Virus record (IMG/VR): IMGVR_UViG_3300025127_000279 | Span: 1 to 23,841 of that record | Length of the DNA stretch: 23,841 nucleotides | Strand: one strand, 5' to 3' | From: a virus | Shown: positions 4,830-8,163 of the stretch, piece by piece | Layout: every line of letters starts with the position of its first letter | Numbering within the stretch: position 1 is the stretch's first letter | Made by a program: the position numbers and the translations under genes | The notes under the pieces: generated by a model | What the model was told of the DNA's origin: nothing | The model's database searches: none | The model's input: only the letters and a program-made list of their open reading frames with translations

Positions 4830-4988
4830 ATGGAAGCAATGACTAGTAGAGTAGCAATGGGTTCAGCAGGGTTTTTCGCTTGCTTAGGATTGCAAGAGAT
4901 TAACCAAGTAGTTAGTCTAATTGTTGGTTGTGCTACACTTATATTTTTAGGACTTTCTATATATAAATTAATCAAGGAGATGAAATGA
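4830..4988 (+). CDS. Small two-helix membrane protein, holin or lysis-accessory candidate
   Basis: A 52-residue gene begins 10 bases after the previous stop, with an A/G-rich leader (GGGAAAATAAA). The protein has two hydrophobic stretches, residues about 11-21 (GSAGFFACLG) and about 27-46 (NQVVSLIVGCATLIFLGLSI), then ends in a basic tail (YKLIKEMK). Its stop overlaps the start of the 3TM holin gene by four bases (ATGA), so the two should be translated together. Small hydrophobic proteins with a charged C-terminus beside a holin are commonly second holins or antiholins. That role is inferred from topology and neighbour only. The first hydrophobic stretch is short for a full membrane span, so a single-span protein is also possible. 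Confidence 0.6.
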   Translation: MEAMTSRVAMGSAGFFACLGLQEINQVVSLIVGCATLIFLGLSIYKLIKEMK

Positions 4989-5392
4989 GTACAGAATTAT
5001 TAGCAATGCTAGGTGGTGGAGCAAGTGGATTTTTGTTCAAACTTATCGGCACATTAGTACAGAATCAAGCAGCAGTTACTGAAGGCTTGATCAAAAAACA
5101 ACAAGCATCAGACGCAAGTGCAGATGCAGCAGCAGCTAGGGTAGATACCTTTGGTGCTTGGACACGTAGAATTATCGTGTTAACAGTATTGTTTGGTGTA
5201 ATTATTGCACCATTTATATTAGCACACAGTGAAGAGGGTGTTACTGTAGCAAGTGAATATAGTAAATGGTTTGGATTTGCTAAAGGCACAGTTTACCAAA
5301 CTCTTCACGGATACATAATTTTACCAGAAATAAAAACAGCGGTTATTAGTATTATTTCCTTTTACTTTGGAAGTGCCGCAGTAAGTAAATAA
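4985..5392 (+). CDS. Holin, 3TM type (GTA_holin_3TM-like)
   Basis: This is likely the holin that permeabilises the inner membrane to start lysis. The 135-residue protein has a hydrophobic N-terminal segment (residues about 4-24, LLAMLGGGASGFLFKLIGTL), a polar Ala/Asp/Gln-rich linker (about 25-58), a clear membrane span (about 62-81, RRIIVLTVLFGVIIAPFIL), and a C-terminal span (about 111-130) preceded by GYIILPEIKTAV and followed by FYFGSAAVSK. This order matches what I remember of the 3TM holin family first described in gene transfer agents and common in marine phages. A good Shine-Dalgarno site (AAGGAG, 4975-4980) precedes the ATG, which overlaps the previous stop. No endolysin is recognisable next to it, which is unusual for a lysis cassette. 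Confidence 0.65.
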   Translation: MSTELLAMLGGGASGFLFKLIGTLVQNQAAVTEGLIKKQQASDASADAAAARVDTFGAWTRRIIVLTVLFGVIIAPFILAHSEEGVTVASEYSKWFGFAKGTVYQTLHGYIILPEIKTAVISIISFYFGSAAVSK

Positions 5393-5414
5393 TTATGAAA
5401 TGTAAATTATGTAA

Positions 5415-6254
5415 ATGGATAAGCAAACTGCCAAAAATAAACTCAAAGAATTGCGAGATTCTCTGTCCGAAGTTTTGGATGGAAAGAATCACCAAAGTTC
5501 TGAAGAGATTAAAGAGCAGTCTGCTGAAGCTATCCAGCAAGCCCGTTCAGCTAGTAAGCAGCTTAAAAAGTCGCTTCTTGAAAAAATAAAAGATCTACCT
5601 GTTGTACAGAAGGTTAGTGAGCTAGGTACCGCTGGTAGTGTTGCTGTAAGTACAGCCGCAGTTACTCAAACAAATGTCGCAATAGATCAGACAGAAGTCT
5701 TCGTGGCAAGTGTCGCAAACGATATTGTGGAGGAGCGTATCGAGGCCCCAATGTTTATTGATACCTTTGTTGACTTCCACGCTTTGAATGATTGGGGTCA
5801 AGTTGTGCTTATAGAAAAGGTTTCCGAGGCTCAGGCTTTCGTTGCTGAGGCTTCCGAACAACTACAGACTTCCACTCAATCTGCCCCTTCTCAGGATTCC
5901 ACACCTGAACCCGCTGCTTCTTCCAATAGTTCTTCCTCTGAAAAATCCGCTCAAAGCGGTCAGCCACAACAAACTGATAAATCACAAGGGACACAAAACA
6001 AAGGGCAAGAATCAAAAGGAGAAAATTCATCTAAAAATAACGATTCAAAAGAAGATAACAAAGGTAAACAAGAATCAGCCCAAGAATCCAAAACTGAAGA
6101 ACAGAAAGAATCTCAAGAAAATAAATCATCCTCTAATGCTGATACAAAGTCAGAGGCTGTCAAGAATAATATACCTGTAGTTAACACACCTATTGATATA
6201 ATAGACGAAGTTAAACCTCACTCTAGTATAATACCAGTATCATCTACTAACTAA
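5415..6254 (+). CDS. Low-complexity 279-residue protein, unknown function
   Basis: I do not recognise this protein. Residues about 1-75 form a charged, heptad-like helical region (MDKQTAKNKLKELRDSLSEV and so on) typical of a coiled coil. Residues about 55-140 are less charged and beta/alpha mixed. From about 145 to 250 the sequence is extremely polar and repetitive, dominated by Ser, Gln, Lys, Glu and Asn (for example SKNNDSKEDNKGKQESAQES), so it is probably disordered. It ends with IPVVNTPIDIIDEVKPHSSI. The ATG has a TAA directly upstream in frame and no clear Shine-Dalgarno site. A short different-frame reading frame (5395-5589, starting 3 bases after the holin stop) overlaps its start, so initiation here may depend on coupling. 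The stop overlaps the next gene's start by one base. Its place among membrane and lysis genes hints at an envelope-related or assembly role, but this is not shown. Confidence 0.65.
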   Translation: MDKQTAKNKLKELRDSLSEVLDGKNHQSSEEIKEQSAEAIQQARSASKQLKKSLLEKIKDLPVVQKVSELGTAGSVAVSTAAVTQTNVAIDQTEVFVASVANDIVEERIEAPMFIDTFVDFHALNDWGQVVLIEKVSEAQAFVAEASEQLQTSTQSAPSQDSTPEPAASSNSSSSEKSAQSGQPQQTDKSQGTQNKGQESKGENSSKNNDSKEDNKGKQESAQESKTEEQKESQENKSSSNADTKSEAVKNNIPVVNTPIDIIDEVKPHSSIIPVSSTN

Positions 6255-6424
6255 TGGAATTTTTTAAATACATATTTGAAAATTATAAAGATAACATCTT
6301 AGGTATGACCTTTGCTTATATTGGCATCATATCGATTTTCATTATGTTTTTACCTAAAGACAATATCATCAGTAAGCTCTTTAAAGAGTTTGCTTCAATC
6401 CTTACTTCACTATTCAAAAAATGA
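6254..6424 (+). CDS. Small single-span membrane protein
   Basis: This is a 56-residue protein. It has a short amphipathic N-terminus (MEFFKYIFENYKDN), one membrane-spanning segment at about residues 15-33 (ILGMTFAYIGIISIFIMF), then a Pro-Lys-Asp turn and an amphipathic, basic C-terminal helix (about 39-56, ending LTSLFKK). The start overlaps the previous stop by one base (TAATG), and its stop overlaps the next gene's start by four bases (ATGA). It is therefore locked between the low-complexity protein and the PEP-CTERM-like protein. A spanin or antiholin role is possible, but there is no lipobox or coiled coil to support a spanin. Function unknown. Confidence 0.6.
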   Translation: MEFFKYIFENYKDNILGMTFAYIGIISIFIMFLPKDNIISKLFKEFASILTSLFKK

Positions 6425-6690
6425 GCCACGAAATACAATACCTAAACAACGACTCCGATTACGATTGGGGCGAAAGCATATCACTATCTAACTATAATTA
6501 CTTCTTTGTACCATCAATACCCGAATGGGCATATGGAGAATTTGATGGACTTCTTTACGAAGGAGTTCAATATAACTGGGATGAAGTTGATTACCGATTA
6601 TCTGTTGAATACAACAGTGTACCTGAACCAGCGAGTGTAGGTGTTATAATGGGATTAGCGCTAATTTGTATAGTATTATTTAAAAAATGA
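6421..6690 (+). CDS. Small acidic protein with a PEP-CTERM-like C-terminal sorting signal
   Basis: This 89-residue protein ends with the three-part pattern of PEP-CTERM exosortase signals: the motif VPEPAS (residues 67-72), a hydrophobic span (about 73-87, VGVIMGLALICIVLF), and a basic tip (KK at 88-89). The rest (1-66) is acidic and unusually rich in Tyr and Trp (for example NYNYFFVPSIPEWAYGEF). Known PEP-CTERM proteins are exported surface proteins cleaved by an exosortase/EpsH-type enzyme in Gram-negative bacteria with extracellular polysaccharide. They normally have an N-terminal signal peptide, and none is visible here. The gene is coupled to both neighbours by ATGA overlaps, so it belongs to the phage operon. 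Either it mimics or engages the host sorting system, or it is simply a small C-tail-anchored protein with a chance PEP motif. Confidence 0.65.
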   Translation: MSHEIQYLNNDSDYDWGESISLSNYNYFFVPSIPEWAYGEFDGLLYEGVQYNWDEVDYRLSVEYNSVPEPASVGVIMGLALICIVLFKK

Positions 6691-6797
6691 AACCTAACAA
6701 AAAACTTACAGCAAAACAAAAAAAAATAGCAAGTGCCGCTGCTCCAAAAGATAAAATTACTGGAGCTGATTTCAGAGCACTTAGGAGAAAAATATAA
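6687..6797 (+). CDS. Tiny basic protein, 36 residues
   Basis: The first of eight short basic genes. Its ATG overlaps the previous stop by four bases (ATGA). The sequence starts MKPNKKLTAKQKKIASAA and continues with PKDKITGADFRALRRKI. The block LTAKQKKIA...PKDKITGADF..LR looks like a conserved short phage protein that I associate with marine phages, but I cannot name a family. There is no cysteine or membrane segment, and about a third of the residues are Lys or Arg. It probably binds nucleic acid or an acidic virion protein; that is inferred from charge alone. Confidence 0.5.
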   Translation: MKPNKKLTAKQKKIASAAAPKDKITGADFRALRRKI

Positions 6798-6818
6798 CAA
6801 TTAACAAAAGGATATATT

Positions 6819-6908
6819 ATGCCAATGGGAAAAGGAACATACGGTAGCAAACGAGGAAGACCACCAATGAAAAATGGTATGAAAAAAAGAGGAATGCGAA
6901 AAAGATAA
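6819..6908 (+). CDS. Tiny basic protein, 29 residues (MPMGKGTYGSKRGRPP type)
   Basis: This is a very short gene with its own ribosome site (AAAAGGA at 6807-6813). The start MPMGKGTYGSKRGRPPMK is a pattern I recall seeing as a recurring mini-protein in aquatic phages. The second half is almost entirely Lys, Arg, Gly and Met (MKKRGMRKR). GRPP resembles the core of an AT-hook (normally RGRP with flanking basic residues), so binding to the minor groove of AT-rich DNA is conceivable. The length is near the limit for confident gene calling; support comes from the ribosome site, the tight packing and the family-like start. Confidence 0.5.
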   Translation: MPMGKGTYGSKRGRPPMKNGMKKRGMRKR

Positions 6909-6910
6909 TT

Positions 6911-7027
6911 ATGCAAAGAAAAATATTATCAGTTGCTCGCAAATTAGAAAAAGCGAGTAAAGCTCACGCTGGTCAAGCCAAACTATTGAAATCACTAGCT
7001 AAGAATGGCAAGAAAAAAAATAGGTAA
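6911..7027 (+). CDS. Tiny basic helical protein, 38 residues
   Basis: The gene starts two bases after the previous stop. The sequence reads MQRKILSVARKLEKASKAHA followed by GQAKLLKSLAKNGKKKNR, a continuous amphipathic helix with basic and Ala/Leu faces and a Lys/Arg tail. The core KLEKASKAHAGQAKLLKSL resembles short proteins found beside similar genes in marine phages, from memory. Its last 23 bases overlap the next gene in another frame, which is common in this tightly packed region. The role is unknown; binding to nucleic acid or membranes is plausible from charge and helix shape. Confidence 0.45.
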   Translation: MQRKILSVARKLEKASKAHAGQAKLLKSLAKNGKKKNR

Positions 7028-7190
7028 AAAAGGTAAATCAGGAGGTAAAATATGTCCTGAAGGTAAAGCTTGGGCTCGACGTACATTTGATACATACCCA
7101 TCTGCGTATGCAAACTTAGCCGCAAGTAAATATTGTAAGGATCCTAACTATGCCAAAAAAGCAAAAGGTGGCAAAAGAAAGGGTAGATAA
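7005..7190 (+). CDS. Short conserved basic phage protein with two cysteines
   Basis: This is a 61-residue protein. After a Lys/Gly-rich start (MARKKIGKKGKSGG) comes the block KICPEGKAWARRTFDTYPSA, then YANLAASKYCKDPNYAKK, then a Lys/Arg-rich end. This block (two cysteines, and aromatic residues at regular places) is one I recall as strongly conserved among short aquatic-phage proteins, so I am confident that it is a real gene even though its function is unknown. The start overlaps the previous gene by 23 bases. The two cysteines could form a disulfide or help bind metal, but only two ligands are visible. It probably acts in the virion or on nucleic acid. Confidence 0.65.
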   Translation: MARKKIGKKGKSGGKICPEGKAWARRTFDTYPSAYANLAASKYCKDPNYAKKAKGGKRKGR

Positions 7191-7194
7191 CATT

Positions 7195-7533
7195 ATGAGT
7201 AACGAATATATAATCAGTTTCAGATCAACTATAACAGATCAATATGGCAACAAAACACGAGGCCCTGGATTTGGTTCTACACTTAAGGTAAAAGCCGATA
7301 ATAAAAAAGACGCTTTGTCTAAAGCAAAGGAACTTGATAAATATAAGGCAAATCAAAAAGACTATAAAGCTAGAGTAAATAGGGAATTAAGCACTGGCGA
7401 AAGAATGAGAGTATCAACAAATGTGTTAGAGGTTCCTAAATCAAGTGGGGGTAAAAACCTTAGAAGCGTAGGTGGCGGAGGCGGTGGAGGTCGATTACCT
7501 TCATTTATAGGAAATAGAAAATTAATACCTTAA
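7195..7533 (+). CDS. Basic protein with Gly-rich tail, unknown function
   Basis: With the start at 7195 this is a 112-residue protein (MSNEYIISFRSTITDQYGNK). An in-frame ATG at 7150 would add 15 residues but overlap the previous gene by 41 bases; the later start has a purine-rich site (AGAAAGGG at 7177-7184) upstream and gives a natural beta-strand beginning. The N-terminal half looks like a small beta/alpha unit (FRSTITDQYGNKTRGPGFGS, VKADNKKDALSKAKELDKYK). The C-terminus has SSGGKNLRSVGGGGGGGRLP, a flexible Gly-rich linker followed by a short end. The function is unknown. It sits in the middle of the basic mini-gene cluster, just upstream of the tail nozzle, so it may be a minor virion part. 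Confidence 0.6.
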   Translation: MSNEYIISFRSTITDQYGNKTRGPGFGSTLKVKADNKKDALSKAKELDKYKANQKDYKARVNRELSTGERMRVSTNVLEVPKSSGGKNLRSVGGGGGGGRLPSFIGNRKLIP

Positions 7534-7535
7534 TT

Positions 7536-7781
7536 ATGGGACAACTTAAGAATTGGCTAAAACAAGATTGGGTAAGGATAGGTACAGATGGTTCAATCAA
7601 AGGAAAGTGCGGAACATCTAAAAACAAAAAAAGACCCGACAGATGCTTACCAAGAGCAAAGGCACAATCTTTGTCAAAAACTGAGCGAGCTGCAACAGCA
7701 AGAAAGAAAAAGTCAGGGCAAAGAAGGGGCAAGACGGTTGTTGCGAATACTCCTAGGGCTAAAGTAAGAACTAAAAAATAA
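7536..7781 (+). CDS. Conserved basic phage protein (WVRIGTDG...CGTSKNKK...RCLP type)
   Basis: This is an 81-residue protein with the ordered motifs WVRIGTDGSIKGKCGTSKNK, RPDRCLPRAKAQSLSKTERA and a basic end (TARKKKSGQRRGKTVVANTP, then KVRTKK). I remember this as a recurring small family in environmental phages. Two cysteines lie 19 residues apart. The whole chain is strongly basic. It starts two bases after the previous stop, and its stop overlaps the next start by one base (TAATG). A DNA- or RNA-binding role is suggested by charge, but no structure or function is known to me. High confidence as a gene, low for function. Confidence 0.65.
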   Translation: MGQLKNWLKQDWVRIGTDGSIKGKCGTSKNKKRPDRCLPRAKAQSLSKTERAATARKKKSGQRRGKTVVANTPRAKVRTKK

Positions 7782-7933
7782 TGAAGAAAGGAATGCCAAT
7801 AGAAACCGCAAGGGATAAAAAAGGTAAAAACCCCGTGACTGGACGAATGGGTTATAAAGCAAGCGAATACAAACCAGTCGGTAGAATTTTAAAGGATTAT
7901 AATCCAGATGAATTTAAAAGAAAACTTATATGA
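7781..7933 (+). CDS. Small basic protein, 50 residues
   Basis: A short gene linked on both sides by stop/start overlaps (TAATG before, ATGA after). The sequence begins MKKGMPIETARDKKGKNPVT and ends GRILKDYNPDEFKRKLI. It is basic and polar, with no cysteine, membrane segment or known motif. The overlaps and its position in an unbroken series of basic mini-genes are the main evidence that it is real. The C-terminal part (KDYNPDEFKRKL) looks helical. No function can be assigned. Confidence 0.5.
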   Translation: MKKGMPIETARDKKGKNPVTGRMGYKASEYKPVGRILKDYNPDEFKRKLI

Positions 7934-8163
7934 GAAAGGAGCACAAAAGCAAAAAAGGCGGACTTACTGCAAAGGGACGTGCGTACTTTAAAAGAAAGAC
8001 TGGTGCTAATCTCAAACCACCTGCACCAAATCCAAAAACTAAAAAAGATAAAGCTCGAAAAAAATCTTTTTGTGCTAGAATGGCTGGAGTAAAAGGGCCA
8101 ATGAAAGATAAAAAAGGAAGACCAACTCGTAAAGCACTTGCACTGCGTAGATGGAAATGTTAA
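7930..8163 (+). CDS. Conserved basic phage protein (GGLTAKGR...SFCARM...RRWKC type)
   Basis: This is a 77-residue protein with ordered conserved blocks: HKSKKGGLTAKGRAYFKRKT, then GANLKPPAPNP, then KKSFCARMAGVKGPMKDKKG and the end ALALRRWKC. I recall this small family from many aquatic phages; it may be the family labelled DUF6321, but I cannot verify that. It has two cysteines, one at the very C-terminus, and is highly basic. The start overlaps the previous stop (ATGA). It is the last of the mini-genes, three bases before the large tail nozzle gene. The function is unknown; nucleic acid binding or packing inside the virion is possible. Confidence 0.65.
   Translation: MRKEHKSKKGGLTAKGRAYFKRKTGANLKPPAPNPKTKKDKARKKSFCARMAGVKGPMKDKKGRPTRKALALRRWKC

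What the first reader, a model, noticed from the sequence alone, without database searches (positions are those of the whole stretch)
6421..6690. Phage-encoded protein with a PEP-CTERM-like sorting signal but no signal peptide
Seen: VPEPAS, a hydrophobic span of about 15 residues and a KK end in an 89-residue protein, coupled by ATGA overlaps to neighbouring phage genes. Known: such tails are exosortase substrates in Gram-negative bacteria that make extracellular polysaccharide. Inferred: the phage may use or jam host surface sorting, for instance to block superinfection or change the envelope, and its host may carry an exosortase. The missing N-terminal export signal is odd and needs explaining.
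Basis: partly seen in the sequence, partly recalled or inferred. Interest (0 to 1): 0.7.

Follow-up and report, generated by a model that had tools for sequence, protein, structure and literature searches.

The report
Phage module with exosortase-type sorting tails
A family of marine phages carries a small late-region gene whose protein ends in the tag that bacteria use to send proteins through their exosortase sorting machine, and unrelated phages carry the same gene module with other proteins bearing the same tag, which suggests that these phages feed their own proteins into the host's surface-sorting pathway.

Summary
Window 6421-6690 encodes an 89-aa protein ending VPEP-(17 hydrophobic)-KK, with no signal peptide and ATGA overlaps on both sides. 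Alone it scores just below the PEP-CTERM cut-off, but several relatives pass. In 31 distinct homologues PEP is the most constrained element (one amino-acid change in 93 positions), while the membrane span beside it changes freely.

The gene sits in a fixed module: holin-like protein, long acidic protein, 56-aa one-TM protein, PEP gene. I searched IMG/VR with the 56-aa protein alone, which is blind to the tail: all but one of the loci read (a truncated frame) are followed by a protein ending (V/I)PE-x-TM-basic; about 70% of distinct tails are exact PEP. Some have unrelated ectodomains with signal peptides, and the module recurs in T4-like phages.

The missing signal peptide fits N-tail translocation: the N-domain is acidic with 1-4 K/R, and the basic residues follow the span. 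The host link is suggestive only: a sister phage contig is binned with an exosortase-bearing Opitutae MAG.

Best reading: a phage-encoded, exosortase-directed envelope protein. Its purpose (surface masking, exosortase decoy or lysis aid) is undetermined.

The parts
6421..6690 (+). PEP-CTERM-tailed protein (type A), 89 aa, no signal peptide
6619..6630 (+). VPEP motif (residues 67-70); PEP codons are the most constrained of the gene
   Evidence: pN 0.010 against 0.26 (N-domain) and 0.39 (TM and tail)
6631..6687 (+). C-terminal membrane span (residues 71-87) and KK end
   Evidence: hydropathy; predicted helix 70-88, pLDDT about 85
6254..6424 (+). TM56: 56-aa single-TM protein, ATGA overlap with the PEP gene; the module's marker gene
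5415..6254 (+). long279: acidic, low-complexity protein with a conserved LGxAGxVAxSxAAxxQ-like stretch; module member
4985..5392 (+). hol135: multi-TM, holin-like protein (no family hit; 'holin' is inferred from hydropathy and context); a 67-98% identical form goes with the module, a 45-59% form is found without it
4830..4988 (+). TM52: small single-TM protein upstream of hol135; also present in phages without the module
5395..5589 (+). ORF starting just after hol135, overlapping long279 in another frame; Cys-motif start (such as MxCxxCKWI) conserved in module-bearing phages

Best explanation
This is a phage-encoded substrate for a host exosortase, lying among the structural (late) genes as part of an exchangeable envelope module. 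SHOWN: the C-terminus has the three-part PEP-CTERM layout, PEP is under the strongest purifying selection in the gene, and proteins with other ectodomains in the same slot and in the same module of unrelated phages, many with signal peptides by inspection, keep the same kind of tail. INFERRED: the acidic N-domain crosses the inner membrane as an N-tail without a signal peptide, leaving PEP at the periplasmic face of the span and KK in the cytoplasm; a host exosortase recognises and probably cuts at PEP; the freed domain acts at the outer envelope of the infected cell, for instance to mask the receptor or alter the surface late in infection.
For: Tail model hits. PEP pN 0.010 while the same codons vary synonymously (pS 0.53); TM and tail pN/pS 0.69. 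Search with TM56 alone: every locus listed except L286, whose frame is truncated, is followed by a (V/I)PE-x-TM-basic protein; distinct tails by my scan are 56 PEP, 10 PEM, 8 PEL, 3 PES, 1 PEV, 1 PEQ, plus L001 (PEP, missed by the pattern). Proteins with a signal-like N-terminus occupy the same slot, including L065 beside type A-bearing L037 on the head-protein tree. The same three-gene module lies in otherwise unrelated phages with T4-like genes (PhoH, exonuclease, sigma-like). N-domain K+R 1-4 and D+E 10-19 in 53-81 residues, basic residues after the span. The type A profile finds C-termini of cellular PEP-CTERM proteins in 15 of 346 genomes of the Opitutae MAG's order and in 0 of 32 of another order. 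Sister phage contig L049 is in an Opitutae MAG with 2 exosortases.
Against: The window's own protein is below all curated PEP-CTERM cut-offs and lacks the N-terminal signal of known substrates. In roughly 30% of distinct module tails the last P of PEP is replaced (PEM, PEL, PES, PEV, PEQ), so strict PEP is not needed everywhere. Host identity rests on one short binned contig that ends before the module. No processing, expression or location has been measured.
Confidence: 0.6

Rival explanations
1. Lysis or envelope-bridging module: holin-like protein, long charged protein, TM56 and the PEP protein act together to breach the envelope, and the tail is mainly an inner-membrane anchor.
For: The module follows a holin-like gene (hol135) and co-occurs with a specific form of it; long279 has a weak hydrophobic stretch (0.97) followed by a long charged region; TM56 and the PEP protein are single-span proteins.
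Against: An anchor alone does not explain strict PEP beside a freely drifting span, nor PE-x kept across different ectodomains; no spanin or holin family hit.
Confidence: 0.2
3. The tail is an ordinary C-terminal membrane anchor, descended from or similar to a host PEP-CTERM tail, but not used by any exosortase.
For: Below-cut-off score of the window copy; third P lost in some lineages; host not established.
Against: PEP almost invariant at a divergence where silent sites differ widely.
Confidence: 0.12
4. Tail-anchored protein with its acidic domain in the cytoplasm, for example an acidic binder or DNA mimic.
For: Acidic domain and no signal peptide.
Against: KK/KRK end and near absence of K/R before the span predict N-out; proteins with a signal-like N-terminus share the slot and the tail type.
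Confidence: 0.06

Closest known systems
PEP-CTERM proteins / exosortase (EpsH) system (TIGR02595, PF07589, PF09721)
   Same: C-terminal PEP, membrane span, basic end; the phage profile finds cellular PEP-CTERM tails in the order of the Opitutae MAG
   Different: Phage-encoded; the window's type has no signal peptide; its ectodomain matches no model; it is part of a conserved phage module
Signal-less N-tail inner-membrane proteins such as Pf3 coat protein and ProW (own knowledge)
   Same: No signal peptide, N-tail poor in positive charge, basic C-terminal side of the span
   Different: No PEP motif and not sorting substrates
Bacterial tail-anchored membrane proteins (PMC3087755, abstract only)
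   Same: C-terminal span, no N-terminal signal
   Different: Usually N-in (own knowledge), whereas charge here predicts N-out; PEP before the span
Phage u-spanin (T1 gp11; own knowledge)
   Same: Small phage envelope protein with C-terminal span, here near a holin-like gene
   Different: No lipoprotein signal; PEP tail; other ectodomain

Membership tests
PEP-CTERM protein family | C-terminal tripartite tail: PEP, hydrophobic span, basic cluster | tested here: met
   Present in the window and homologues; TIGR02595 matches 8 of 10 homologues, 5 of 14 records over cut-off
PEP-CTERM protein family | Curated model cut-off passed by the window's own protein | tested here: not met
   PF07589 18.7 bits against 20.7; no TIGR02595 row for the window
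PEP-CTERM protein family | N-terminal Sec signal peptide (stated for exosortase substrates in PMC12188702) | tested here: not met
   No hydrophobic N-terminus in type A. Present by hydropathy or inspection in proteins that fill the same slot in related phages and in the T4-like module; no signal-peptide predictor was available
PEP-CTERM protein family | The cell has an exosortase | tested here: inconclusive
   Host unknown; the Opitutae MAG holding a sister phage contig has 2 exosortases; 92 of 132 genomes of its order have one
PEP-CTERM protein family | Exosortase-dependent cleavage and surface delivery | not testable with these tools
   Needs experiment
Signal-less N-out/C-in membrane protein | Few positive charges before the span, positive charges after it, no signal peptide | tested here: met
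   (sequence criterion only; topology itself not measured)
Spanin | Lipoprotein signal or spanin family match | tested here: not met
   No N-terminal lipobox in the sequence; no family match

The most novel reading that the evidence does not exclude
Unrelated phages share a dedicated, exchangeable module that delivers phage proteins to the surface of the infected cell through the host's exosortase, with interchangeable ectodomains on a common type of sorting tail, in one lineage without any signal peptide.
Probability: 0.5. Interest if true: 0.82.

Novelty: new variant of a known kind. Interest (0 to 1): 0.7.

Why it matters
My paper searches found no report of phages carrying PEP-CTERM substrates; the library is partial. 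If true, phages exploit the exosortase pathway, whose role in the envelope is still poorly understood. The module gives a sequence mark for phages of exosortase-bearing hosts, and the small signal-less protein would make it testable whether exosortases need a Sec signal peptide on their cargo.

Tried and rejected
Programmed frameshift joining TM56 to the PEP protein: rejected, because the A-rich run is not conserved (AAGAAATGA, AAACGATGA) while the ATGA overlap is kept in all type A copies. Upstream in-frame start giving a signal peptide: none seen. AlphaFold of type A (pLDDT 58) and type B (pLDDT 55) gave only the spans and a weak beta fold; the PDB fold search had no match at E<=0.001. Type A in GTDB genome contigs by peptide patterns: none. 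Type B profile in 346 genomes of the MAG's order: none. tRNA genes for host prediction: none. Type A in the named phage collection: none. Papers naming phage C75C1 or C48C1: none.

Full report
What is there. The window is a 23.8-kb IMG/VR record of a tailed phage: it has a major head protein (phrog_1328), a DnaB-like helicase and an Erf-like annealing protein, and its head protein is 66% identical to that of phage C75C1. I call it podovirus-like from gene content and relatives; this is an inference. ORF 6421-6690 encodes the 89-aa protein described. VPEP (residues 67-70), a 17-residue span and KK are present, both ATGA overlaps are real, and no N-terminal hydrophobic segment exists.

Is it more than chance? 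The window copy alone is marginal: PF07589 E=0.0019 but below cut-off. Two searches gave homologues in many viral contigs. In 31 distinct sequences PEP is intact in 30 and PEQ in one. Codon analysis gives pN 0.010 for PEP against 0.26 for the N-domain and 0.39 for the span and end, with pN/pS 0.02, 0.38 and 0.69. The P, E and P codons themselves vary silently. TIGR02595 matches 8 of 10 homologues in A1 and passes its cut-off in 5 of 14 records, with at most one hit per record. Some members have textbook tails, such as VPEPSTYALLAGFAVLIFTMIKRRNK in L044.

A module. Wherever the upstream DNA is held, the PEP gene follows TM56, long279 and a close form of hol135. Relatives that lack it, such as C75C1, have a more distant hol135 and neither long279 nor TM56. 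On the head-protein tree both states are scattered, which suggests exchange of the module. In L065 and L108 the slot after TM56 holds a larger, unrelated protein with a signal-like N-terminus, a predicted beta domain and a tail of the same kind; L065 sits beside type A-bearing L037 on the tree.

Tail-blind test. I searched IMG/VR with TM56 profiles, which contain no part of the tail, and read the next gene. All loci except L286, whose frame is truncated, end (V/I)PE-x plus a span plus basic residues. By a simple scan of all TM56-bearing loci the distinct tails are 56 PEP, 10 PEM, 8 PEL, 3 PES, 1 PEV and 1 PEQ; the scan missed L001, which has PEP with a long extension. Limits: that scan covers all loci held, including those first found through the PEP protein; the sequences are related and partly from overlapping contigs, so the counts are not independent events; and TM56 loci were kept best-first (80 of 123 for A6).

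Other phages. A DNA pattern for [VI]PEPSTYAL in IMG/VR hit 27 contigs, and nearly all hits are C-terminal tails. Some are in phages otherwise unlike the window that carry T4-like or general phage genes, with the same order: long protein, TM56-like protein, signal-peptide PEP-CTERM protein. A profile built only from window-type TM56 found L212 (1e-10), L214 (1e-8), L217 (1e-5) and L206 (3e-4) in its first round; the long-protein profile found L205 (2e-6) in its first round and L214 and L220 later. E-values are for a small local set. Some of the 27 contigs may be bacterial or prophage sequence; I did not check each.

The missing signal peptide. Type A N-domains have 1-4 K+R and 10-19 D+E, with the basic residues after the span. 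By the positive-inside rule this predicts N-out, C-in, which puts PEP where an exosortase would meet it. Signal-less N-tail translocation is known for Pf3 coat and ProW (own knowledge). This is a prediction, not a result.

Host. Head-protein relatives occur in two GTDB MAGs. L049, sister to type A-bearing phages, is in an Opitutae MAG with 14 PEP-CTERM hits and 2 exosortases. L048, whose hol135 is of the module-lacking form, is in a Rickettsiales MAG with neither. Exosortase is found in 92 of 132 genomes of the first order and 0 of 32 of the second. Neither contig reaches the PEP slot, and the Opitutae bin holds three head-protein hits on different contigs, so binning error is possible. This is suggestive only.

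How it most likely works. An envelope protein from the structural-gene region is inserted N-out, recognised by the host exosortase through PEP, and delivered to or held at the envelope. What it does there is open: masking the surface, decoying the exosortase or helping lysis. The neighbouring holin-like gene keeps the lysis reading alive.

Membership. It has the family's tail but fails the signal-peptide criterion and, for the window copy, the curated cut-off. I therefore call it a variant that works like a PEP-CTERM substrate rather than a full member.

Noticed in passing
window 5395-5589: An ORF of 57-72 aa with a Cys-motif start (such as MxCxxCKWI) directly after hol135 stays open across module-bearing phages while overlapping long279 in another frame; a candidate overlapping gene.
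   Followed up: partly
L214:4693-5847, L217:809-1972: A signal-peptide protein of about 385 aa, outer-membrane-barrel-like by eye, follows the PEP-CTERM gene in these phages; no Pfam or NCBIfam hit, and none in PHROGs for L214.
   Followed up: partly
L194, L195, L201, L203, L218: Another viral-contig family: 115-aa acidic protein with signal-like N-terminus and VPEPSTYALFAGMIGLGYAVYRRKFLTK tail.
   Followed up: no
window 6687-8163: String of very small, highly basic proteins between the module and the tail gene, several conserved also in phages without the module.
   Followed up: no
L073:6090-6245, L072, L086: In some module-lacking relatives a 51-aa one-TM protein (MNEILQII or similar) follows hol135 instead.
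   Followed up: no
L001:4151-4519, L020:2204-2551: Two homologues extend about 25-35 residues past the usual end with more basic sequence, unlike standard PEP-CTERM ends.
   Followed up: no
L049:5299-6042: Lysozyme-like ORF (GIGFNL motif by eye) upstream of the head gene in the Opitutae-binned relative; likely endolysin, not tested.
   Followed up: no
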